Source: Zymoseptoria tritici IPO323
Taxonomy: Eukaryota; Ascomycota; Dothideomycetes; Mycosphaerellales; Mycosphaerellaceae
Length of the DNA stretch: 64,000 nt
Assembly (NCBI RefSeq): GCF_000219625.1
Contig: NC_018217.1
Coordinates: 2,480,001 to 2,544,000, forward strand
Direction of reading: 5' to 3'
Part shown: piece by piece, positions 1 to 14,265 of the stretch
How positions within the stretch are numbered: the first letter of the stretch is position 1
Layout: each line of letters starts with the position of its first letter
Translations under genes and position numbers: made by a program
The notes under the pieces: generated by a model
What the model was told of the DNA's origin: nothing
The model's database searches: none
The model's input: the letters and a program-made list of their open reading frames with translations, nothing else

Positions 1-360
1 GCCATATAAAGCTAGTTCGCTCCGGAGTTCCTTAATCTTTTGCTAGAGTTCGAGGAATTCGTATTCCGCCTAGGCTTCCTAGTTCCGTTTCTTACAGGTT
101 AGTGCGTCCCCTTAAACTAGGTTAGCCTAAGTAGTCGAGTCGGTGCCTTCCTAGGTTGTTCCGGCATCGTCGACAGTTTCCGCGATAGAGGTAGTGCTTA
201 GCTAGCAGGCGGCGGCGTCCGCGTTGGACTTAGCGGCTAGTATAGTACCCTACTAGCGAGTAAAGGTGTCGGAAGGAGATTCCTCGCGTCTACAAGTAGC
301 CTTAGGTACTATATCGATTAGGGGTTCGATACTATAGTACATAAGTTTAAACAAATTACG
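1..360 (-). pseudogene. gag N-terminal fragment of element C
   Basis: Read on the minus strand, the stretch near bases 1-75 gives a helical segment ending KIKELRSELALYG, interrupted by TAG codons where Gln or Trp is expected. It aligns with the equivalent part of element A's gag (KIKELRAELDYP near 9,790-9,850). The remainder up to the LTR is leader and low-similarity N-terminal sequence. It is broken by RIP-type stops and truncated by the window edge, so it is not functional. Confidence 0.65.
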
Positions 361-738
361 TATTAGGATTGCCTCGTAATAAGGCAGGGAAAGACTAAAG
401 TAGGGAAGTATTAAACAATAGGTTTTAGAATATAACGACTCGATTCGTTAAAGGAGGGAATAAAGGAGGAGAGCCTCCTTCGCTATATACACAGCTACTG
501 CTAGGTTCTATTCCCCTATCCTTTACTTCTCTTATTATAAGCAGGATTGTCTGTCCCTTCGTAGCCCTTCGATCCTTATTATTAGGCATTAAGAGGCAAG
601 CTAGATCAGACTGCCTTAATCTGTACGCTGTTGCGCTTTTCGTAACTAGGATAGCTCGTTGTTATGTTCTTCGAAACTAGGTTAGCCCAGCTTAGGGGAG
701 ATAAGGCCAGACTGCGCTTACGTAAGGGGATCCTCACA
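361..738 (-). repeat. 5' LTR of element C (378 bp)
   Basis: On the minus strand it begins TGTGAGGATCC and ends at CCTAATA, RIP-altered from CCTAACA. It is the reverse complement of 13385-13762 with about 95% identity by eye, and the differences are almost all C/T or G/A transitions. No polypurine tract lies beside it; gag-like sequence follows it leftward. It is therefore a 5' LTR of a minus-strand element and not the missing 5' LTR of element B. Confidence 0.85.
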
Positions 739-739
739 C

Positions 740-3632
740 CTAATTACCCTAAGGAGGGAGAAACTTGCTAAACTCTTTGTAGAAACGGACTATTTCGACA
801 AGAACAAGGATAGCCTCCCTAAGTCTAAGGAACTACCTATATTCGAAGGGAAGACCCGTACTAATTACGAAGACTAGCTCCGCGTAGTAAAACGCAACTT
901 CCGCAGATACTATAGATTCTCTAACTAAGAGGACCGAAAGGTCGACTACGCCGCTAACTATATAGGTAAGCTCTAATAAGACTACTAGGAGCGCTACGTA
1001 GATTAGCTCGATAGCTAGACTACGCTAACCTAGACTATAATAAAGGGAGTTATACTTAACTCTATAAGGACAAAGGCGGAACGCCGCGAGAAGGCCTATA
1101 AACAATTGCGGAAGGCCTCCCTCGAAGACTGTACCCTTAACTAGCTCTTTAAAGAGCTAAAGATCTTTTAGAAGGAGTTAAAAGAAAAGAACGAGGGGCG
1201 TAAGATCCTTAACTTTAAGGCCTCCTTACTATAGAACTACCGCTCCTACCTCTCTAACTACCTAGCTCTAGCTACTACGCTTATTAAGGCCTAAGAAAGG
1301 GTTAATAAAACCTATAGGATTATTAAGGGTTAGAAGTAGGAGTTAAGGGACAACCTAGGTCGTAGAAGAGGCAAGGGCAACCGAAAGAGACGTAGAAGTA
1401 ATAGTATTAACGACTAGAACTCTAAGAAGTCTAAGTTAGAGGACGGATTAGACTAGAGGGGCCTATCTAAGGCTACTTACTATAGTTGCTGCTAAGTTAG
1501 GCATATTAAGCGCGATTACCCTAACCCTTCCCTCTAGAAGGACTTAGAAAAAGAGGCGCCCCCTAAGTAGACACTACTATCTTAGTAGGCTAGGTTCTCT
1601 ATACTAAGGAGTAGCGCAGGATAGCGGAGCCGGGTTAGCGCTACTATAAGTATAGGCGCCTTATCGAAGTTACGCTAACCTTAAATAGTCTAGGGAGGAC
1701 TAGAATAATTATAGGACTAATCGATAGCGGCGCGTAGGATAACTTTTATAACTCCTTATTAGCAAAGGATATAGACTAGGTTATCTAGGAGCCGCCTACT
1801 AGGGTCGCGTACAAGACACTAAACAGGCAAAGCCTTTAGGTCCTTAGCGAAACGTAGAGCTTATATAAGGCCCGGGACGACTTAGGACGAATGTACGGAT
1901 ACGTCGACACCTTTAGAGTAGGGCGCATCTATAGCTATAAGGTCGTCTTAGGAATACCTTAGCTTAAGAAATACAATCTAAACATAGATTTTACCCTAAA
2001 AAGGGTTAATTAGAGAACGAAGCCCCGAAAACGATAGGCGATAGCCGTTATTAGGCTAGAGAGGTTCTATAGGGAGTGCCTTAGCAAAGTAAATATAGCA
2101 CTTTATGTTATAATAATCTAGGACGCGTCGGAAGAAGCTAGTCCGGGTTAGGGGGGCGTTCTAAGCGCCTACTCTAACTTCGTAGATGTCTTCTTAGAGG
2201 AACTCGTAGGCGAGTTAGCTCCCTACAGTCTATATAATCTAAAGATCGAGCTAGTAGAAGGAGGAAAGGTCCCCTTTAGTCTAATATACGCCCTATCTAA
2301 GGCAGAGATAGAGGCTATATAGACCTAGCTACCCGAATACCTAAAGAACAGGTTTATTAGGCGGTCGACGTCGTCGGCTAGCGCTCTAGTCCTCTTTGTA
2401 TAGAAGAAGGATAGTACCCTCTGCCTATATGTCGACTACCGTAGTCTAAACGTAGTAATAGTTAAGAACAGGGGGGGTCTACCTCTTATTAGCGAGTCCC
2501 TCGACTAGCTAGCTAGTACTAAGTACCTTACTAAGGTCGACCTGCGCTATGCGTACTATCGGGTGCGTATTAGGGAAGGCGACGAGTAGAAGACGGCATT
2601 CCGGACTAGGTACGGCTATTTTAAATACACAGTAATACTATTCGGGCTTTATAATGCCCTAGTAGTGTTCTAGAACTTTATTAATAGCGTCCTAGTAGGA
2701 CTAGTTAATATCTTCTATATTATATACCTTAACGATATTCTAATTTACTCTAAAACGCTTAAAGAGTATAAGGATTATATCCGGCAGGTCTTAGAACGGC
2801 TATAACGGCACAAGCTATACGCTAACCTAGCTAAATACGAGTTCTACAAAAGCTAGGTCGAATACCTAGGCTACGTAGTTACCTAGGATAGGCTGCGGAT
2901 CGACCTAGAACGTATTAAATCGGTCTAGGAGTAGCTAGTCCTTATGTCTATCTACGATATAAGGGTCTTTATTAGTTTTGCTAACTACTACCGACGCTTT
3001 ATTAAGGGCTTCTCGCAGCTAGCGGCCGCCCTAAACTGCTATACTAAAGGCAAGAAGGCGGCGAACTAGCGCTAAAGAGAGCGTACTTATCTCGAATTAG
3101 ATAATAGGGCAATCTAGTCCTTCTATAAGCTACGCTATAAGTTCGTAGAAGAGCCTGTTCTATACTACTATAACCTAGAGCTCCCCTATCGGGTAGAGAC
3201 TAACGTATTAGGAGAAGTAATATCGGGCATCCTATCCTAGCCTTATAACAAGGGGGGCAAACTGTAGTAGTTCCCGGTTGCCTACTTCTTAAGGAAGATA
3301 ATTGCGGTAGAAAGGAACTACGGAATAGAAGATAGCGAGCTCCTTACTATAGTAGACTCCTTTAAATACTTTAGGCACTACCTTAAGGGCGCCCGCTACT
3401 AAGTAGAGTTGCTAACCGACTATGCGAACCTTTAGACCCTTATAACGACGAAGACCCTCTCGAGGAGGCAAGTTAGATAGGCTAAATAGCTGTCGCAGAT
3501 TGATTTTAGGACTACGTATAGGCTAGGTAAGGCAAATAGCGCCGCCGACGCACTTAGCAGGAGACTAGACCTTACTAAGGAGTCGCATTTGGGCCGATAG
3601 GCTACCGAGGAGGAAGCAGACGCTAGCGTCCG
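740..3632 (+). pseudogene. gag-protease-RT-RNase H of element B (5' part of pol)
   Basis: Gag capsid-like sequence runs from about 740 to 1450 (LPIFEGKTRTNYED near 830-870). A degenerate CCHC zinc knuckle lies near 1475-1525 (C..C....H....Y, the last Cys turned to Tyr). The aspartic protease signature LIDSGA is near 1718-1740. Reverse transcriptase spans about 2150-2960 with YLNDILIYSK at about 2724 (YLDD altered to YLND by G to A), followed by RNase H to about 3560. The frame is punctuated by TAG/TAA at Trp and Gln positions. Translation runs to the exact edge of element A and resumes in frame at 10438. Confidence 0.9.
3628..3632. repeat. Target-site duplication of element A, left copy (GTCCG)
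   Basis: GTCCG directly abuts the left LTR end (TGTTAG..) of element A and is repeated exactly at 10433-10437 after the right LTR end (..CTCACA). Five bases is the usual duplication length for Ty3/gypsy integrases. Confidence 0.95.
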
Positions 3633-3961
3633 TGTTAGAAGCACCTCGAGAGGGAATGTAGGCTTGCACCGAAAACAAATAGTTGTAGAATGTAACAAGT
3701 CGATTCGATAAGGAAGGGAATGGACAAGAGCGTCCCCCGAGGCTATGTACCCGCCCTTCGTGTTGCCAAATGCGTCCCTCCGCCTAGACTAGGCACCGGT
3801 CGCAGTCTAACGTCCGCTCGGGGGCTATCGTGCGCCTGTAAGGTTCGTCCCTCTATAGGATGTCCTAGTCTAGGCTAGATAAGATAGCACCGGTAATCTG
3901 TAGTGCTAGGATAGTCCAGGTTAGGACAGGTAGGGGGCGTTATCGTAAGGGTGTCCTTACA
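3633..3961 (-). repeat. 3' LTR of element A (329 bp)
   Basis: In plus orientation it runs from TGTTAGAAGC to TCCTTACA and is the direct repeat of 10104-10432. The polypurine tract abuts it on the internal side, which identifies it as the 3' LTR of a minus-strand element. Confidence 0.95.
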
Positions 3962-3980
3962 TTGCCCCCCTCCCCTCTCT
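3962..3980 (-). other. Polypurine tract of element A
   Basis: On the minus strand this is a G/A-only run (AGAGAGGGGAGGGGGG) plus CAA, ending exactly where the 3' LTR begins. It would be the plus-strand DNA synthesis primer. Element B has the same tract at its 3' LTR. Confidence 0.85.
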
Positions 3981-4197
3981 ACAACTAACCTTAGTTGCGG
4001 TAGAAAATTTACAAGCTGTTAGCTGCTAGATGTCCCAATCTAGAAGGATTTGCGGGTCCGTAGCGTCGCTATATTAATTTAATTCTTCTTCTAAACTTTC
4101 TCTCTTCTTTACTAACTACTAAAAAGTAAGTATTCTAGGGTAGTGCTAGTATAGTCTAGTTTAGGTCTAGCAAGGCTAACATTAGCGCAGACATACT

Positions 4198-5099
4198 ATG
4201 TCTTCCGCCGCCGCGGCCCTCGTGCGCAACGATTACGCCAAAAAGGTCCGCAACGGGGCTTTTAACCATAATCCGTGCTTTAATTGCATTAAAGACGTTA
4301 AGCTGAACAAAGACTTAACTAAACTATACTAGTTAGCGTTAGAGAAGCCTATTAAGGGCATTACTGCTAAATGCGCCGGCTGTTTAGACAACAGAAATGC
4401 CGATTGCTTCTAGGTAGGATATTTCTAGACTGTTCTAGAGTCTTCTGGATCTAGGCTAACCCTAAATAGCTCCCTCCGGCCCGTAAGGACGAGTAGGACA
4501 CTATTAATGCCTAGATTTAAGCAGAGTACGCTAATCCGGTAGTAAACGCGGATAACAGGAAGAAGTTAAGGAGCAAGGTGCTCCTATTTGCTAGTTCGAT
4601 TAAGTTGTATATGCCGTTCTAGCTTATTTTGGACTAGTATACTGACAGTTGGCGCCTTAGGGAGCTTAGAAATAGCGTTCGCGGCCCGGAGGGTCTCACT
4701 TTGCACTAGGGTACCCGCGAGTAGGACACGATGGGTTAAAAGGTTAAGAAGCGGGACAGGTCGGCCGCTGCTTATATAGAGAAGGCCGTAAGTGTACCGT
4801 TCTAGCGCATTTTAGGCTATGCTAACGCTAGGATATAGGAGCAGGCTGCTACCGGGACCCTAAGGGCCAAGAGAAGCCGCCTAATTAATCTAAAGGGCGC
4901 TATTACGGTCTAGTCGTTAACAGACAAGCTTAACAAGTACAAGACTGCCTTGCATCGCAATAGCAAGGCCCTAGAGAGGTTTAATTCGTACGCTAGGGGT
5001 ACGGGAAAGACCAACAGGGAGGCGTTAAAGGCTTTAGTAAGCACTACAGCCGCTTAGGAGCGTAGAGAGGACGCTTCGGACGAGGATAGCGATAATTAA
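4198..5099 (+). pseudogene. Spliced accessory gene inside element A, antisense to gag-pol
   Basis: Three exons by my reading: 4198-4413, 4470-4787 and 4839-5099 (72, 106 and 87 codons; 264 residues). They are separated by introns 4414-4469 (GTAGGA, branch GCTAAC, TAG) and 4788-4838 (GTAAGT, branch TGCTAAC, TAG). The protein starts MSSAAAALVRNDYAKKVR. It has a Cys pattern C-x2-C-x28-C-x2-C-x7-C in exon 1 (NPCFNC, KCAGC, NADC), which looks like a zinc-binding module, and an acidic end (EDASDEDSDN). RIP-type TAG/TAA codons interrupt it at presumed Trp and Gln. Element B carries a homologue with exon 1 of equal length and both introns at the same places. I recognise no family. It runs tail-to-tail with pol, whose stop is at 5338. 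Confidence 0.8.
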
Positions 5100-5337
5100 G
5101 CCGGTTTAGTCTAGTTAGCTCTAGCAGTATACAGGGTATAACAGATAACGCTATTACGCAGAGTAATAGGGCCCTTTTAAGTTATAATAGCGCAGAATAG
5201 CTTAACGTAGACTAGAATAGTCCAGAATAGAAAGCCTTAACGCCCAAATAAAATCCCTAGAATTATTAAAAATGTTAAAGTCTAATATTATAAAGCAAAA
5301 AGGATTAAAAAATTAACTAAGGGGGTTAGCGTTTTTT

Positions 5338-8300
5338 CTAGAATTTACCGCGCGCAGTCGGTCCTTTCTGGCCTATTCTGCGCCGGTAGGCCCGTATTGC
5401 TGCCGGGCTAATATTAACTGCCGCTTCCTAGGAGTTCTCGGACTAGTCGTAGTCTTTCTACTTAATAAGGTACTCCCGATTGTTTAGTTCGTCTACACGT
5501 TCGGCTAGAATAGACTCGACCTCGTATTTATTATCCTCTCCTACGTTATATCGCATTATCCTGTCCTGTTTGCGATTAAACTAGTCCGGGATAGATAGTT
5601 CTAGCAGAGAAACATAGAAGGTTAGGTAGATCTTTAGTAAGTCTGGTAGATCGAGCGTATATGCGACGCGGTTAATAACCGCTTTTACCTTATAAGGTCT
5701 AATGTATTTGTAATCGAGCTTCGCCGAAGGTCTTAGTAACCTAATGTTGCGTATGTTAAGGTAGACTTCGTCTCCGACGTTAAAGGAGATGTCCTTCCTA
5801 TACTCGTTCGCCTACTTAGCTATTTGCTTCTTTGTTTTGGCTAGTCTAACCTACAGTTTCTTCTAGTTAGAGATAACGCGGTCCGCAAGTTGTGCGGCGA
5901 ACGGGGCTTCTCGTCCATTCTAGCGTAGTCTAGGCTAGTAGCACTACCGAGGGTCCTATGTCGTATACGCCTAGAATAGCGTAACCCCTGTTGCAGAGTG
6001 TACGCTATTATTATACGAGAATTCCGCAGTAGAGAGTAGGGAGGCCTAGTTGTCCTGTTTATAGTTGCAGTATATACGAAGATACTGCTCTAGCGTCTAG
6101 TTTTAGCGCTCTATTTGCCCGTCTGTTTAAGGGTAGAACGCTATACTTAGTTTTCGGCGTATGCTAAGGCAGAAACAGAACGTACTCTAGAATTTTAAGG
6201 TTAGGATAGGCCCTCGATCCGACGTAATCGTAGCTAGTGCGCTATAGAGTCGTACGACTTCCCTTATAAATACCTCTACGAGCTCTGCTGCGGTAATTGT
6301 CTTCTTATATAGCGCATAATAGACTATTTTGGTACATCTGTCTACGATTACTAGGATTAAGTCGTAGGCCTAGCCTAGAAGCATGCTAGGTAGCAGGTCC
6401 GTTATAAAGTCTAGCGTTACATCCTCCTATAGTGTAAGCGATAGTAGCTCTGCGTGCAGCAATCCGTAAGGTTTGTGCCGCCGTAGCTTTGCCCTACTAC
6501 ATGCTTAACACGTTCGTGTGTAGTCCTTAACGTATTTCCTTATTTTGGGCTAGTAGAAACTCCTTTGTAGAAGTTCGAGCGTTTAAGAGAAGCCGAAGTG
6601 CCCTGCTATAGGGTCGTCGTAGCATTCCTAAAGCAGTTAGAGTCTTATGCTTCCTTTAGGTACGTAGGCCTTGCCGTCTATATACGCGATTCTATCCTCG
6701 TTAGTCTATCGATCTGCCTAGAAAGCAGGTTCCGCTTAGTCCTTCTCCTTGTTAATCCTGTTAAAGGTCGGATCTTTTAAGAGGGCGCGTTTTAGGCGCG
6801 TTTTTAGGTCCGGGGCGTCCTTTACTGCCCCTACGTGCCTTACTAGTCTATTATAGTCCAGATACGGTTAGAATGCCGTCTAGAGGAGCCGTAAGCTTAC
6901 AGACGACTCTTCGTCTGTAGCCTACCGTCTAGAGTAGTCCTTATCCGTAAGGTTAGGCCTTCTGCTTAGTGCATCCGCCGCCCTATTAGCCTTGCCGGGT
7001 CTGTAAATAGTCCTAAAGTCGATCTGCGACAACTACTCGGCCTATCTAACCTGCCGCCTGGACAAGGTCTTAGTCGTTATAAGAGTTTGTAGGTTTGCAT
7101 AATCTGTTAATAGTTCGACCTAGTATTAAGCCCCCTCTAGGTATTGTCTAAAGTGCTTAAAGGAGTCTACGACTACTAACAGCTTAGCGTCTTCCGTAAC
7201 GTAGTTCCGTTCTGCCGCGATTATCTTTCGTAAGAAGTATAATACAGGGAACTACTACGTCTTGCTGTAGTCTTCGTATAGTTAGCTTAGGATACCCGAG
7301 ATTACCTCGCCTAAGGCGTCGGTTTCTACCCTATAAGGCAGTTCTAGGTTAAAATAGTATAGGATAGGAGCTTCCGAGAACCTTTTCCACAATTCGTCGA
7401 AGGAAAGCATAGCTTGCTCGTCGAGCTCTAAGTATACTCGTTCCTTCTTGCGTTAGTTTACTACCTTTTTCCCCTCCGTATAGCGGTTAAGTGCTGCAGC
7501 GAGGCGTAAGAAACCCTTAATAAAGCGCCTATAGTAGTTCGCGAAGCCGATAAAGACCCTAATGTTATATATTAACTAGGGAAGTAGCTACTCCTAGACC
7601 GATCTGACCTGTTCTAGGTCGATCTCTAGCCTATTACGTATAATAACGTACCTAAGGTAGTCGACGCGGTCCTTATAGAAATCGCACTTAGATAGGTTAG
7701 CGTACAACTTGTGTTTCCGGAGGCGCTCTAGCACCTCCCGGACGTAGCCCTCGTGCTCCTTCACCGTTTTAGAGTATATAAGGATGTCGTCGAGGTAAAC
7801 GACGCAGAACACGTCGATTAGCCCTACTAACACGCTATTAATAAAGTTTTAGAACACCGCGGGGGCATTGTAGAGCCCGAAGGGCATTACGGTATATTCG
7901 AAATGGCTGTATCTAGTCCGGAAGGCTGTCTTCTACTCGTTGCCTTCCCGGATACGGACATAGTAGTACGCGTAGCGGAGGTCTATCTTCGTAAAGTACC
8001 TAGCGCTAGCTAGCTAGTCTATTAACTCGGAAATTAAGGGAAGACCCCCCCTGTTCTTTACCGTAACCGCATTTAGGCCGCGGTAGTCGACACAGAGGCG
8101 GAGTGTGTTGTCCTTTTTCCTTGCGAAGAGGATTAGCGCGCCCGCCGAGGATGTTAAGCGGCGAATAAAGCTACTTTTTAGATGTTTAGGGAGCTACTTA
8201 CGCATCGCATCTATCTCTGCCTCCGACAGAGCGTACATAGGGCTAAATAGGACCCTTGCTCCCTTAACTAGGTCGATCCTAAGATCGTGCGGTCTATGCG

Positions 8301-10060
8301 GTGCTAACTTGCTAGCTAACTCCTCTAAAAAGACGTTAGAGAAGTTAAAGTACACTATTAGGATACTATTCTAGTCTAGTTCGAGTCTATCCTTAACCTC
8401 TTAGATCGACATAACGTAAAGAGCTGCCTCGACTTTACTAAGACACTCCCGGTAGAACCTGTCCGGGGATACTACCGCTATCGCTTAACGCCTTTAAGGT
8501 TTCTACCTCTAGAAGACCTTCTTTAGAGTAAAGTTAATACCCGGGTTGTACTTCTCGAGCTAGGGTATGCCGAGCACGACTTCGAAACCGTAGATACGTC
8601 CTACCTTAAACGTGTCTACGTACCCCTGCGCCTTGCTAGAGGTGTCTACAGCCTTATAGGAGTTTCTCGTTTCTCTAAAGACCTGTAGGCTCTAGCTATT
8701 TAGAGTTAGGTACTTTATCTAGGTAGATAGCTCGGAAACCGTCTACCCTATTTCCTTTACTAGTATAGAATCGCAGAAGTTGTCCTAGGCGCCGCTATTA
8801 ATTAGGCCCCGGACCTTTCTAGACTCCCCTAGGCCGTTTAGCGTTAACTCGACGCTAATTAGGCGCCCTTGCTAGGCGCGGCGCTTTCCTAGCTTAGCCG
8901 AGCGCCGCTAATCCTTATTATAGAGGACTTAGCCTACCTAAGCAACAGCGTCTACTTAGGGGGCGTCTCTTTCCCTAAATCCTTCTATAGGTGCTAGTTA
9001 GTGTAGTCGCGGCGGATATGCCCGACCTGTTAGCATCCGTAGCACGTAGCCTTAGAGGGGGCCTTTAGGTTCTGTTCGCTATCGCTAGTCCTTACCTTCT
9101 TGCCGTCCGGAGCAGTAGAGCCGTTGCTAGGGCGCTTCTTCGCCTACTTAGCAGACCTTTTAGTAGCCTGCCTCTTACGAGCCTCCTATTTAGAGCCCTC
9201 GTTAGCATAGTAGGCCTTTTTAGCCCTCTCCTCGGCGTCTACTAGGTTTAGTAGGGCGGTAGGGTAGTTCGAGAGGCGGTTGCGAAGGGTCTATAGAAGG
9301 GCGCTGTAGAACCTAAGGATCTTCTTGCTATCGTCCCTTTTATCGAGCTCCTTCTAGAGTGTCTTTAGTTCCTCGAGGAGTTCTTCCGGCATGCGGTTAC
9401 CTAGGGTAACCTTTTTTAGCTTCTCGTAGGCCTTTTCGCGCTATTCGGTCTCTGTGCCTATCGAGTTAAGCATAACCTCCTTTATTATAGACTAGGTTAG
9501 CTTAGACTAGTCGTTAAGGCCGTCGACGTAGCGTTCCTAGTAGTCTTGCTAGAGCTTTCCTATATAGTTAGCAGCAAAATCGACCTTGCGGTCTTCGCGT
9601 TCGGCGAATCCTTTATATCGTCTAAAGGCTCTTTCGAGGGCTCGGACCTAGTCGTCGTAGCTCGTACGCGACTTGCCCTCGAAGACTAGTAGCTCCTTTA
9701 ACTTAGGGAGGTTATCCCTCGTTTTGGTATGCTAGTTAGGTTCGGAGAAGAGGTAGCGGAGGGTAGCCGTCCTTAGGTTCCCTTCTAGCGTAGGATAGTC
9801 TAGTTCGGCACGGAGTTCCTTAATCTTCTACTAAAGGGTTAAGAACTCGAAGGTAGCGCGGGCGACTTCGTTGTCGTGCTCCCGGGTAGCCCTTTCTTCC
9901 GCGGTCTCTCCTAGGCTAGGCTAGTTAAGAAGGTTAACGTCCTGCAGCTAACTAGCAGGCGTAGCTAATAGCTCTATAGAGGAAGCGCCTACCTACTGTC
10001 GGGCGGAGGTGTTAGGAAGGGAATCGTCCTAACGACGGGTAACCTTTAGAGCTATATCGG
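5338..10060 (-). pseudogene. gag-pol of chromovirus A, RIP-mutated
   Basis: In coding order on the minus strand: gag from about 10060; zinc knuckle CYGC..VGHIRRDY near 9003-9045; protease LINSGA near 8780-8810 (DSGA with Asp altered to Asn); RT about 8350-7590 with an intact YLDDILIYSK near 7775-7805; RNase H about 7450-6950; integrase about 6850-5850; and a C-terminal chromodomain about 5545-5400 (KYEVESILAE, EYLIK, then Trp positions read TAG). The stop is at 5338-5340. The left gag boundary is approximate. The chromodomain places the element among chromoviruses, which in known cases can target methylated H3 chromatin. Almost every Trp codon has become TAG, so no full polyprotein can be made. 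Confidence 0.9.
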
Positions 10061-10103
10061 TAGTTTTTAGTACAGTTGTACGGTTGTTTTTAATCGAATC
10101 GAA

Positions 10104-10432
10104 TGTTAGAAGCACCTCGAGAGGGAATATAGGCTTATACCGAAAACAAATAGTTATAGAATGTAACAAGTCGATTCGATAAGGAAGGGAATAGACAAGA
10201 GCGTCCCCCGAGGCTATGTACCCGCCCTTCGTATTGCTAAATACGTCCCTCCGCCTAGACTAGGCACCAGTCGCAGTCTAACGTCCGCTCGGGGGCTATC
10301 GTGCGCCTATAAGGTTCGTCCCTCTACAGGATGTCCTAGTCTAGGCTAGATAAGATAGCACCGGTAATCTGTAGTGCCAGGATAGTCCAGGTTGGGACAG
10401 GTGGGGGGCGTCATCGTAAGGGTGTCCTCACA
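10104..10432 (-). repeat. 5' LTR of element A (329 bp)
   Basis: Direct repeat of 3633-3961, starting TGTTAGAAGC and ending TCCTCACA. It retains Gs and Cs at several sites where the other copy has A or T, and vice versa; every difference is a transition. Confidence 0.95.
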
Positions 10433-10437
10433 GTCCG
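10433..10437. repeat. Target-site duplication of element A, right copy (GTCCG)
   Basis: Exact repeat of 3628-3632. Deleting one copy together with element A joins B's codons in frame (..DASVR then LFRKVFAL..). Confidence 0.95.
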
Positions 10438-11989
10438 CCTCTTCCGAAAGGTATTTGCACTGCCGACAGGGCAGGATAGCCTAGTCTAGTATATTAGGGC
10501 AGCGGTAAGGACCCCGAACCTTCTAGAGCGGCTTAAGAAAGCCCTTAGTAAGGACCCTACTTATAAGAGGATAGTCTAGGGGAAGGCTGTTGCTAAGCCT
10601 ACCTTCTAGGCGGAGAGGTAGTCCCTAGAAGAGGGCGTTATATATATAAATAGTAAGGCATACATACTAGAAGGCGCTATAAGGCTCTAGCTACTTTAGG
10701 AATGCTATAACGACCCCCTCTCTAGATATTTCGGCTTTGCAAGAACCCTAGAGTTGCTTTAGCGTAGTTTCTACTAGCCTAAGATGCGGAAGTATATTAA
10801 GAAGTTTGTAAGGACCTACTAGGCGTACGAAAGAGCGAAGCTACGAAGGCACAAACCGCACGGCCTGCTGTACCCCGAACCCCCCTTACTAACTCCCTAG
10901 GCTAACATTACGCTAGATTTTATTACTAACCTCCCGCTAAGCAAGTTCCTAAGCTAGTCTTATAACTGTATACTAGTAGTAGTAGACCGCTATACTAAGA
11001 TAGTCTATTACGTGCTATGCCGGAAAACAATTACGTTAGCTAACCTTACTAAACTTATAATAAGAGAGGTTGTCCGCCTTTATAGCTAGCCGGCTACGAT
11101 TACGTCTAACCGCGGGCTAATCCTTACCTCTAAATTCTAGAGCACCTTCTACTACTGCCTCGGGGTACGCCGGAAGCTAAGTATAGCGTTCTATCCGTAG
11201 ACGGATAGTTAGACAGAAAGGCAGAACTAGATACTAGAGTAGTATTTACAGACGTACTATAACTATAAGCAGGACAACTAGGCCTCTCTACTATTGACAG
11301 CGGAATTCGCCTATAATAACAGTATGCATATAGCAACCGGGCTAATGCCGTTCTAAGTATATATAACGAGGGACCTACGAAGGTCCTACTAGCCTAGAAT
11401 ACGCTAGAAGGATAGCGAGGCGCTAAAGGCTGTCTAACTCGCGGAGCAGATAATTACTAATTAGAAGAAGATGCGCGAAAGACTAGCTAAGACGAAGAAA
11501 CAGATAGCTAAGTAGGCGAACAAGTATAGGAAGGACGTCTCCTTTAATATAGGTAACGAAGTCTACCTAAATACGAAGAACATTAAGTCTATACAGCCGT
11601 TACCTAAGCTCGACTATAAGTATATCGGACTATACAAGGTTAAGGCAATAGTTAACTACGTAATATACATACTCGACCTCCCTAGCTCGCTAAGTATCTA
11701 CCCTACCTTCTACGTCTTGCTCCTTAAGAAGTCTATCCCGGACTACTCTAGCCGCAAATAGGACAAAATAAAGCGGTACGACGTAGGGGATAAGGACGAA
11801 TAGGAGGTAGAAGACATCTTAGATAAAAAAGAGGACGACCTATATAACTTTAGTTACCTAATTAAGTAGAAGGGCTTCGAGGAGCATAAGAACTCCTAGG
11901 AGCCTAGATATAACATAAGCCTAGCGGTAATAAGAGCATTTCGCCGTAAGATAGGCTAGAAGGAGCTAAAAAGGCATAGGAAGATGTAA
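10438..11989 (+). pseudogene. Integrase and chromodomain of element B (3' part of pol)
   Basis: Continuation of B's pol after element A. The integrase core shows the first Asp (LDFITNLP). The second Asp appears as Asn (ITSNRGLI; GAC to AAC in TpG context). The conserved Glu remains in a T-E-R-Q-N context. The N-terminal HHCC module is degraded (His to Tyr, Cys to Tyr), all consistent with RIP. The C-terminal chromodomain lies at about 11795-11960 (EVEDILDKKED, FSYLIK, NSWEPRYNI with Trp as TAG). It ends at TAA 11987-11989. Confidence 0.9.
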
Positions 11990-12214
11990 GAAAAATCCCG
12001 AGGATTTCTAAGGGACTTAGATAAAATTATTTAAATTTAAAAATTCGAAGGGCGGAATCGGCTTTATTCTAGTCTAATCTAGTCTAAGTTAACTAACTCT
12101 GCGCTATTTAACAACTATCTAGGCCCCGCTATAGTCTTAATATACTATATCGACATTATCTATTATACCCCTAGTCCCGGAAGACCTACGCCCGCTATTC
12201 TAGTCCAGAATAGC

Positions 12215-13105
12215 TTAATTAAAGTCGGAGTTGCCCTAGTTCGGGTCCTCTACCTTACTACGGTCCTTAGCGGTCGTTAGAAAGACTATCTTACGTAACT
12301 ATCCCTTCTTTAGAGCCTAGTTACTTATAACAATGCGGTTAAACACCTCTAAGGCAGTGCTAACCGCGATTAGGCAATCCTCGGCCTCCTTAGTACGCTT
12401 ACGGTCCGACTTACAGCCGCGCACGTCTATTAAGCGGCGCTTCTTACTAGGGGTGCTACTAGACTACTACAAAGAATGTTAGTAAGGGCTAGATTAAGCT
12501 AGGGATAGTACATACAGCCTTCGCTAAGATCGCACTAGCCGAGCGGTTCCTCTTAGGCACCTTCTGTCTAGTATCCTCCTAGGTAGCAGTGCTAGGGTGC
12601 TAGGAGAGACCGTCCTCGCTACGGAAACTACTATCTAACTTCCTATTTAACTATCCTAATTAGCTGCTAGTCTAGAATACGCTAGAAAGGGACACTTACG
12701 CCTCTATAGAGCCTATAAAACACAGAATACGATCTAGCAAGTCTTCCTTCTTAGCCTTAGACTAGGTAGTGCGGCCGTAGACGGTATTAATATCCTGCTT
12801 AATAGCTTTCTAGGCGGGTTCTTAGTTAACCGGTATCTAAGTAGGACAGTTAGCGACAGAATACGCTAGAATTAACTAAACTAACTTACCTAAAGACAGT
12901 CCGCATTCTTGCTAGTTAGGTATCCGGAACACTTAGCCAGGATGTTACCGGGTAGGGGCTTCTCTGCCGCAATCTAGCAGATCTTAGACAGGTCCTAGCC
13001 CTCCTTAACGCTAGAGAGGCATAACGAGCACGGATTCTTGTTCTACCTGCTAGCTCGGACTTTCTTGTAGTACTTGTCGCGAAGATAGTAGAGTGCGCTA
13101 GACAT
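12215..13105 (-). pseudogene. Spliced accessory gene inside element B, antisense to pol
   Basis: Homologue of the plus-strand gene in element A. Exons: 13105-12890 (72 codons), 12836-12516 (107) and 12466-12215 (84, with stop); 262 residues. Introns: 12837-12889 (GTAAGT, GCTAAC, TAG) and 12467-12515 (GTATGT, TACTAAC, TAG). It starts MSSALYYLRDKYYKKVR and keeps NPCSLC, KCSGY (Cys to Tyr by RIP) and NADC at the same spacing. Exon 2 starts after NADC-L-stop, just as in A. The last exon begins near KKRRLIDVRG, comparable to KRSRLINLKG in A, and both end in a short S-D-x-N tail. Internal TAG/TAA codons make it a pseudogene. Function unknown; the Cys module suggests nucleic-acid or protein binding. 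Confidence 0.8.
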
Positions 13106-13368
13106 TATACTAGTCTAGTCGCAATGTTAGCTAATCTAGCGCTAATCTAGACTGTTCTAGAGCTAGCTGCTAGTACTTACTTTTAGTAGGTGTTTATAAG
13201 AAGAGAAGAATTCGAGGGCGAGAAAGAGTAGTATATGCGCGAGGGACCTACTTTTATTTCCTAATCGGGACACCGAGCAGCTAGCCTAGCAACGTTAGCA
13301 GTTAGTAAATTAGACCTATAGCTAAACGCTACTAAAGATTCGCGCACGCAACTAAGGTTAGTTATACC

Positions 13369-13384
13369 GGGGGGAGGGGGGCAA
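13369..13384 (+). other. Polypurine tract of element B
   Basis: GGGGGGAGGGGGGCAA directly precedes the 3' LTR, matching element A's tract. It fixes the plus orientation of B. Confidence 0.85.
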
Positions 13385-13762
13385 TATAAGGATCCCCTTA
13401 CGTAAGCGCAGTCTGGCCTTATCTCCCCTAAGCTAGGCTAACCTAGTTTCGAAGAACATAACAACGAGCTATCCTAGTTACGAAGAGCGCAATAGCGTAC
13501 GGATTAAGGCAGTCCGATCTAGCTTGCCTCTTAATACCTAACGATAAGGATCGAAGGGCTACGAAGGGACAGACGATCCCGCTTATAACGAGAGAAGTAA
13601 AGGATAGGGGAATAGAACCTAGTAGTAGCTGTGTATATAGCGAAGGAGGCTCTCCTCCTCTATTCCCTCCTTTAACGAATCGAGTCGTTACATTCTAAAA
13701 CCTATTGTTCGATACTTCCCTACTTCAGTCTTTCCCTGCCTTATTACGAGGCAATCCTAACA
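13385..13762 (+). repeat. 3' LTR of element B (378 bp)
   Basis: Begins TATAAGGATCC (RIP-altered TGTGAGGATCC) and ends CCTAACA. It is the reverse complement of 361-738. It follows the polypurine tract, so it is the 3' LTR of B; the matching 5' LTR of B is not in the window. Confidence 0.9.
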
Positions 13763-14265
13763 CTTCTCGTCTATATTATACGTATTGCATAGCTCTATAT
13801 TATACTACTTAATCTTACTCTTTAATAGGTCGTAGTATGCCTTATATTACCTTATAGAGTCTGCCTTCTTCCTGCTCTTATCTAGTAGATTAAGGTATTA
13901 TAAATCGATCTAATCCTTATATTAGCGTACGAATCGTAGGACCTAGTAGCGGCTTAGATAGACCTTTACAATATCGTAGACGAAGGATCTAAGCATAGTA
14001 GGTATTAGTAGAATGCCTCTACGTATAAGGGTATTAATATATCGTATAAGGGTACGTTCTTGTTAGTATAAAAGAATCGAGTTATTCTCGTCGCGTATCC
14101 TCGCTAAATTAGTTAGCTTTTTAGAGCGGCGCTATAACGTTGTCCGGTATACTGCATATTTATCCGTAATTTCCTAAATATTCTTTCTATCGTTCTCTAT
14201 TAGCTCGTCTAACGCCTTATTAATTAGAGCTATAGTTGTTGTATATTAATTCGTAGAAGTTTGGT
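13763..14265 (-). pseudogene. pogo/Fot1-like transposase, N-terminal remnant
   Basis: The minus-strand translation shows a psq-type helix-turn-helix (ALDELIENDRKNIQEITDKY with one stop read through, then TLQRRSKKL). A CENP-B/Tc5-type DNA-binding region follows (ERTLIRYINTLIRRGILL, MLRSFVYDI, WVLRF), then the entry to the DDE domain (YNIDEK). At that exact point element B begins. In intact family members this motif reads like YNMDEKGF and leads into the catalytic core, so only the DNA-binding half is in the window; the rest should lie left of element B. Stops are RIP-type. I could not place the terminal inverted repeat. Confidence 0.75.

What the first reader, a model, noticed from the sequence alone, without database searches (positions are those of the whole stretch)
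4198..5099. Two-intron gene encoded antisense inside LTR retrotransposons, conserved between two families
Element A has on its non-coding strand, between the pol stop and the 3' LTR, a three-exon gene (216, 318 and 261 bases) with textbook introns: GT donors, CTAAC branch sites, TAG acceptors. Element B, a different family by LTR, has the same gene at 13105-12215, with an exon 1 of exactly 216 bases, exons 2 and 3 of 321 and 252 bases, and both introns at equivalent codons in phase 0. Both encode a C-x2-C .. C-x2-C-x7-C module and MSSA..KKVR starts. Because the gene is antisense, its introns would not be removed from the genomic RNA and could survive retrotransposition. That suggests a separately transcribed accessory protein such as a silencing antagonist, integration factor or regulator. 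Antisense ORFs are known in some plant LTR elements. I know of no spliced, intron-conserved one in fungal chromoviruses, but I could not search.
Basis: partly seen in the sequence, partly recalled or inferred. Interest (0 to 1): 0.88.

Follow-up and report, generated by a model that had tools for sequence, protein, structure and literature searches.

The report
Spliced antisense gene in fungal retrotransposons
Several related families of virus-like jumping elements in this fungus carry, on their opposite strand, an old intron-containing gene for a small cysteine-rich protein, probably a helper or regulator of the element; a gene placed this way is already known in Botrytis, but the introns kept across families stand out here.

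Summary
Element A (3633-10432) and the interrupted element B (gene at 13105-12215) are Ty3 chromoviruses with RIP-type mutations. Each carries a three-exon gene antisense to pol, beside the 3' LTR, with both introns at the same codons in phase 0. Family C (40 DNA copies listed) shares sequence, both introns and the 5'-UTR intron, and adds one intron. Family D (12 copies with a near-full exon 2) shares layout and a cysteine exon, but no significant sequence similarity. A, B and C group by reverse transcriptase.
Codon-position bias, A-B similarity far above shuffles and a small excess of synonymous transversions point to a protein gene kept by selection; every copy read is mutated. Best mechanism: an antisense accessory protein, probably a nuclear zinc-binding regulator, made from its own promoter (inferred). 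Antisense genes at this place are published (brtn of Boty; plant Grande, Retand). BRTN could not be compared and the protein database was switched off. New variant of a known kind; the conserved splicing is the unusual part.

The parts
3633..10432 (-). Element A, complete mutated Ty3 chromovirus inserted in element B; LTRs 3633-3961 (3' LTR) and 10104-10432 (5' LTR), target-site duplication 3628-3632 = 10433-10437
   Evidence: self-BLAST and flank reading
4126..4190 (+). 5'-UTR intron of gene A (65 nt; GTAAGT donor, GCTAAC branch site, CAG acceptor)
   Evidence: donor GTAAGT in 38 and GTGAGT in 2 of 40 A copies; the combined pattern occurs once per strand in window 1-14000, exactly at genes A and B
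4198..4413 (+). gene A exon 1, start codon and six-cysteine module (codons from 4276 to 4407)
4414..4469 (+). gene A intron 1, phase 0
4470..4787 (+). gene A exon 2, with a basic stretch near its end
4788..4838 (+). gene A intron 2, phase 0
4839..5099 (+). gene A exon 3 with stop codon
5247..5252 (+). AATAAA after gene A; weak evidence, since AATGAA stands in 17 of 40 copies and RIP could make the one from the other (AATAAA 22, AGTAAA 1)
5377..5526 (-). chromodomain at the pol C-terminus of element A
   Evidence: PF00385 E=2.1e-8, X at stops
6190..6369 (-). integrase core fragment of element A
   Evidence: PF00665 E=0.0048, below its cut-off
7648..8121 (-). reverse transcriptase of element A
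   Evidence: PF00078 E=2.1e-30 (G000:C2:2487648-2488121)
740..3632 (+). element B internal part left of the A insertion (contains RT)
10433..13762 (+). element B right part, 3' LTR 13389-13762
11804..11947 (+). chromodomain at the pol C-terminus of element B
   Evidence: PF00385 E=3.8e-5, 23.9 bits against a cut-off of 25.1
13115..13180 (-). 5'-UTR intron of gene B (66 nt)
   Evidence: donor GT in 20 of 20 B copies
12890..13105 (-). gene B exon 1 with six-cysteine module
12516..12836 (-). gene B exon 2
12215..12466 (-). gene B exon 3 with stop codon
12063..12068 (-). AATAAA after gene B (19 of 20 copies)

Best explanation
A group of fungal Ty3 chromoviruses carries an old accessory gene antisense to gag-pol, between pol and the 3' LTR. 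Shown by sequence: a conserved coding frame, two phase-0 introns in the same place in A, B and C (and, by layout, in D), a 5'-UTR intron after a pyrimidine-rich stretch in A, B and C, and an N-terminal six-cysteine module. Inferred: RNA polymerase II starts upstream of the 5'-UTR intron, in the internal stretch next to the 3' LTR (A: about 160 nt) or in the LTR itself, and makes a spliced antisense mRNA. The genomic RNA carries only the reverse complement of the introns, so they are not removed and pass through reverse transcription. The protein probably binds zinc, enters the nucleus (basic stretch KVKKRDRS / KVPKRNRS / VKRKREL before the last coding intron) and regulates the element's own transcription, silencing or integration, in the manner of antisense-encoded retroviral regulators such as HBZ.
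For: Exons and introns confirmed. Intron positions identical in A and B, score 303 vs shuffled maximum 59 of 300; A-C 119 vs 55, B-C 68 vs 57, the last only just above. A/B differences by codon position 53/39/62% (chi-square p=1.5e-6). Six cysteines in A and B; five of the six are lost in some copies of each family, always to Tyr as RIP would give (one B cell is a gap). In A, 13 of 15 stop-bearing codon columns are sense in other copies; in B 10 of 18. Divergent A copy L073: transversions 6 nonsynonymous and 5 synonymous against 1350 and 234 possible, ratio 0.21, p=0.015. 5'-UTR intron in A, B and C. Family C and D. Opposite-strand RT on the 3' side of the gene in 36 of 40 A, 17 of 21 B, 11 of 40 C and 10 of 12 D copies, with an RT list of 150 out of 500 candidates. 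A, B and C group in an unrooted RT tree at 0.95, A with B at 0.99. Chromodomains.
Against: No transcript, protein or binding data. Every copy read in the spliced frame is mutated (A 4-20, B 11-20, C 2-9 internal stops), so none here is shown to work. The start codon is ATA in 10 of 40 A and 2 of 20 B copies, and the B intron-2 donor is AT in 7 of 20. Stop counts alone favour the frame only modestly: one reverse frame of A has no always-stop codon against 2 in the gene frame, and in C one reverse frame has as few or fewer stops than the gene frame in 5 of 6 copies. Unspliced antisense-strand frames of A and B also align, up to 138. The AATAAA of A may be RIP-made (AATGAA in 17 of 40). C's first coding intron ends in AAG, a rare acceptor. 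For the C copy in L078 the RTs seen nearby lie on the gene's own strand; the antisense link of C rests on 11 of 40 copies. D has no significant score to A, B or C. No Pfam family reaches its cut-off in any of the four products. DNA binding and nuclear entry are guesses from composition.
Confidence: 0.6

Rival explanations
1. The gene makes a particle or integration factor rather than a regulator: a nucleic-acid chaperone or nuclear-import helper made in trans, comparable to retroviral accessory proteins.
For: A short Cys-rich, basic protein fits nucleic-acid binding of either kind; the sub-threshold PDB matches of the D module are mostly nucleocapsid and Lin-28 zinc knuckles (best E=0.028 to a multiheme cytochrome; nucleocapsid from 0.083).
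Against: Separate antisense transcription would uncouple it from Gag-Pol stoichiometry; the PDB matches are not significant and reflect cysteine spacing.
Confidence: 0.2
2. The antisense RNA, not the protein, is the functional product (double-stranded RNA or silencing control), and the coding frame is secondary.
For: PMC7264820 (passages read) raises this for plant elements; antisense transcripts over the 3' end could pair with genomic RNA.
Against: Codon-position bias, conserved cysteines and phase-0 introns in A-C need a translated product at some time.
Confidence: 0.1
3. A host gene or another transposon's gene was captured recently and rides as a passenger.
For: It has introns and a UTR intron like a host gene.
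Against: Own-genome searches with A, B, C and D listed no strong match that looked like a single-copy gene; but the lists were cut, the surroundings of single matches were not inspected, and the assembly may be incomplete. The gene is kept in three families whose RTs are only 57-72% identical.
Confidence: 0.08
4. Chance or RIP-made pattern read as a gene.
For: RIP makes many TAG motifs that mimic acceptors.
Against: Alignment score, identical intron columns, codon bias, GTAAGT/GCTAAC pattern only at the two genes in window 1-14000, and the independent family C.
Confidence: 0.02

Closest known systems
brtn of Boty / BcGypsy1 (Botrytis cinerea, Sclerotinia sclerotiorum)
   Same: Antisense gene in a fungal LTR element, between pol and the 3' LTR according to the review PMC7264820; a Boty-like copy with a chromodomain and brtn is described in PMC4227169. 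PMC5987419 reports a Monilinia transcript similar to both Boty Pol and BRTN (passages read in all three).
   Different: BRTN sequence and exon structure were not available, so homology and splicing could not be compared. The host of this window was not identified.
Plant antisense additional ORFs: Grande gene23, RIRE2, Retand (TRP28), PvRetro13
   Same: Same position and orientation; Grande's gene has its own promoter and a nuclear protein; Retand's TRP28 is predicted to bind DNA (PMC7264820, PMC11963269, passages read).
   Different: Different hosts and, for Retand, a non-chromovirus lineage; the word intron does not occur in PMC11963269; no TRP28 (PF04195) match here.
HBZ of HTLV-1 (and APH-2 of HTLV-2)
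   Same: Antisense-encoded nuclear regulator of a retroelement (PMC11963269 background passages); HBZ also has a spliced form (recalled).
   Different: HBZ is a bZIP protein transcribed from the 3' LTR (recalled); here a Cys module, and the start site is only inferred.
Zn(II)2Cys6 fungal zinc cluster
   Same: Six cysteines as CX2C..C..CX2C..C near the N-terminus.
   Different: Spacers do not fit (A and B: CX2CX13CX14-15CX2CX7C; D: CX2CX9CX7CX2CX7C) and Pfam finds no zinc cluster.

Membership tests
Ty3 chromovirus (carrier element) | RT, RNase H, integrase and C-terminal chromodomain in pol between LTRs | tested here: met
   A: RVT_1, RT_RNaseH_2 (28.2 bits, cut-off 29.8), rve (weak), SH3_Tf2-1, Chromo. 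B: SH3_Tf2-1, Chromo (just under cut-off), RT by similarity to A. LTRs with 5-bp target duplications
Antisense additional ORF between pol and 3' LTR | coding gene antisense to pol, on its 3' side, in many copies of the element | tested here: met
   opposite-strand RT on the 3' side of the gene in 36 of 40 A, 17 of 21 B and 10 of 12 D gene copies; 11 of 40 for C, where the capped RT list leaves it inconclusive. Asked from gene to pol only, not from pol to gene
brtn / BRTN | sequence homology to BRTN of Boty | not testable with these tools
   Zhao 2011 not held; protein database switched off
brtn / BRTN | position antisense between pol and 3' LTR | tested here: met
   position of brtn taken from PMC7264820
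Zn(II)2Cys6 cluster | spacing CX2CX6CX5-12CX2CX6-8C (recalled) | tested here: not met
   CX2CX13CX14-15CX2CX7C in A and B; D CX2CX9CX7CX2CX7C; no Pfam zinc cluster
Plant TRP28 antisense proteins (Retand) | PF04195 domain | tested here: not met
   not among Pfam matches of A, B, C and pieces of D at E<=1 to 10; products read with X at stops, so weak matches could be missed

The most novel reading that the evidence does not exclude
A clade of fungal chromoviruses is defined by a spliced, antisense-encoded six-cysteine protein whose introns, including a 5'-UTR intron, have survived the radiation of several families because they lie on the strand that is never spliced in genomic RNA: a fungal counterpart of the HTLV antisense regulator HBZ, with its own promoter.
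Probability: 0.45. Interest if true: 0.75.

Novelty: new variant of a known kind. Interest (0 to 1): 0.6.

Why it matters
Introns inside a retroelement should vanish on a trip through spliced RNA unless they lie antisense. Introns at the same codons in families whose RTs are only 57-72% identical give a natural record that this gene is transcribed and spliced apart from the genomic RNA and was not copied back from its mRNA. That makes the open question of what antisense genes of LTR elements do directly testable in fungi, and gives search motifs (exon 1 ending C-[FLY]-x|GT; GTAAGT..GCTAAC 5'-UTR intron) for finding unmutated homologues.

Tried and rejected
Pfam and PDB sequence searches of the gene products gave nothing significant (best sub-threshold Pfam lines: a zinc ribbon, E=0.42, on D exons 1-2 and an unrelated receptor domain, E=0.016, on the start of D exon 3). 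A viral-contig scan with the A/B/C alignment gave 68 pattern matches and no confirmed relative. Stop counts in six frames were too weak alone to prove the frame. The 3' region of an element with a stop-free RT in a 1399-aa open frame (C1:5978369; flank L077) shows no tblastn match to A, B or C below E=0.5; the same test turned up family C in L078 by accident. Structure prediction was not run: the only stop-free exon 1 among the gap-free A copies lacks two of the six cysteines, so a model would mean little. The antisense reading of element D's 3' end first looked like an unrelated gene; its upstream part showed the cysteine exon and two phase-0 introns. A first exon model of family C was off by one base and was redone. 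Left out of the copy counts: four broken or partial A copies (L071, L072, L074, L075) and L027; L073 was treated apart.

Full report
WHAT IS THERE. The window lies in a 39.7 Mb, 21-contig genome (G000:C2:2480001-2544000). Window 1-13762 is a triple nest. Element B (+ strand) starts about 7 kb upstream of the window and ends at 13762. A second B copy, B' (- strand, 5' LTR at 363-738), sits inside it, and so does element A (- strand, 3633-10432). Each of the three has its own 5-bp target duplication. A and B are chromoviruses: pol pieces of A match RVT_1, RNase H (just under cut-off) and a weak integrase core, and both have an SH3 Tf2-1 domain and a chromodomain at the pol C-terminus, B's just under its cut-off.

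THE GENE. Gene A is on the + strand, antisense to pol, its start codon about 236 nt inside the inner edge of the 3' LTR. Gene B is the mirror case. The window copies have 13 (A) and 18 (B) in-frame TAG/TAA codons, the terminal stop included, so neither frame is open as it stands. In A, 13 of 15 stop-bearing codon columns are sense codons in other copies, and in 12 of these 13 the commonest sense codon is CAG, CAA or TGG, the expected sources under RIP; in B, 10 of 18 (7 CAG, 3 TGG). Forty copies of A (40 of 47 candidates scored) and 21 of B are listed in the own genome, as lower bounds. I read 40 A and 20 B copies; one short B copy and four broken A copies were left out and one divergent A copy, L073, was treated apart. 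Internal stops per copy are 4-20 in A and 11-20 in B; none read is intact.

WHY IT IS A GENE AND NOT A PATTERN. The A/B protein score is 303 against a maximum of 59 in 300 shuffles, and both introns fall in the same alignment columns. A/B differences by codon position are 53, 39 and 62% (chi-square p=1.5e-6), as for coding on this strand and in this frame. In L073 (86% DNA identity), transversions, which RIP cannot make, are 6 nonsynonymous and 5 synonymous against 1350 and 234 possible: ratio 0.21, p=0.015 on small numbers. Against this, stop counts separate the frame only modestly. One reverse frame of A has no always-stop codon while the gene frame has 2; in family C one reverse frame has as few or fewer stops than the gene frame in 5 of 6 copies; and unspliced antisense-strand frames of A and B also align, up to 138.

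NEW FEATURES. (1) A sixth cysteine: A has CX2CX13CX14CX2CX7C and B CX2CX13CX15CX2CX7C. Five of the six positions are lost in some copies of each family, always to tyrosine, the RIP outcome of TGC or TGT; one B cell is a gap. (2) A 5'-UTR intron at 4126-4190 in A and 13180-13115 in B, with GTAAGT donor, GCTAAC branch site and YAG acceptor. The donor is GTAAGT or GTGAGT in 40 of 40 A copies, GT in 20 of 20 B and 6 of 6 C copies; the branch site is GCTAAC in 31 of 40, 17 of 20 and 5 of 6, GCTAAT in the rest. The combined pattern occurs in window 1-14000 only at these two genes, and twice in window 15001-64000, both strands scanned. Pyrimidine-rich sequence precedes it. (3) AATAAA about 148 nt beyond each stop codon: 19 of 20 B copies, but only 22 of 40 A copies. 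AATGAA stands in 17 A copies and RIP could turn it into AATAAA, so this signal is weak in A.

MORE FAMILIES. Family C was first seen in L078; 192 exon-level matches were counted with its protein and 40 DNA copies listed out of 57 candidates. Its similarity to A is clear (119 vs a shuffled maximum of 55) and to B just above chance (68 vs 57). Six copies were read: a 237-codon product, phase-0 introns at the A/B places, an extra phase-2 intron, and 2-9 internal stops. Its first coding intron ends in AAG, which is unusual. For the L078 copy itself the RTs seen nearby are on the gene's own strand. Family D (12 copies with a near-full exon-2 match) has the same layout. Exon 1 carries CX2CX9CX7CX2CX7C and ends two codons after the last cysteine at a GT donor, as in A, B and C. 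Two phase-0 introns follow, then a much longer third exon (one copy read). D has no significant score to A, B or C, so its kinship rests on layout alone. No product matches a Pfam family at its cut-off.

LINK TO POL. An RT on the opposite strand, on the 3' side of the gene and 1.5-6 kb away, was listed for 36 of 40 A, 17 of 21 B, 11 of 40 C and 10 of 12 D copies. A same-strand RT within 6 kb was listed for 1, 3, 3 and 1. The RT list holds 150 of 500 candidates, so misses, above all in C, may be list limits. I did not ask the reverse, what share of pol copies carry the gene. In an unrooted RT tree A and B group at 0.99 and with C at 0.95; D is 53-60% identical to them. The 3' flank of an element with a stop-free RT from another group shows no match to A, B or C.

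HOW IT LIKELY WORKS. Shown: gene structure and conservation. Inferred: own promoter, spliced antisense mRNA, zinc binding, nuclear entry, control of the element. Because the gene is antisense, the genomic RNA carries the introns in a form that is not spliced, which explains their persistence in families whose RTs are 57-72% identical.

WHAT IS KNOWN. Held papers name an additional gene brtn of Boty-like elements of Botrytis and cite Zhao et al. 2011, whose title calls it antisense (PMC8365987, PMC4227169, passages read). A review places it antisense between pol and the 3' LTR and adds Sclerotinia (PMC7264820, passages read). PMC5987419 (passages read) reports a Monilinia transcript similar to Boty Pol and BRTN, without strand. 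Plant elements have comparable genes of unknown function (PMC7264820; PMC11963269, passages read). The original brtn paper is not held. My searches that could have shown a spliced, intron-conserved antisense gene in fungal LTR elements (two listed nothing; otherwise listings and abstract starts seen) showed none, which is weak evidence of absence since most subscription papers are not in the library.

VERDICT. A real, old, intron-bearing antisense accessory gene of fungal chromoviruses; new variant of a known kind; function unproven.

Noticed in passing
G000:C2:2473036-window 13767 (L076 and window 1-13767): Triple nest: element B holds a complete antiparallel B copy (B') and element A, each with its own 5-bp target duplication.
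   Followed up: yes
G000:C4:955277-959164 (L004, L027): Antisense-gene ends of families A, B and C lie within about 4 kb of each other, suggesting another nest.
   Followed up: no
G000:C11:376241-376384: Weak match (46%, E=1.3e-5) to exon 1 of family D: a possible fifth family.
   Followed up: no
G000:C2:1894099-1894200: Lone exon-1 fragment of family A type (82%, residues 1-34, no stop); surroundings not inspected.
   Followed up: no
window about 43497 (+): CX2CX6C..CX2C..C motif of a Zn(II)2Cys6 type in the gene-rich part of the window, probably an ordinary host transcription factor.
   Followed up: no
G000:C10:1573500-1575100 (L097): Family D's third exon runs on for some 400 codons of charged, Arg-rich sequence that A, B and C lack.
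   Followed up: partly
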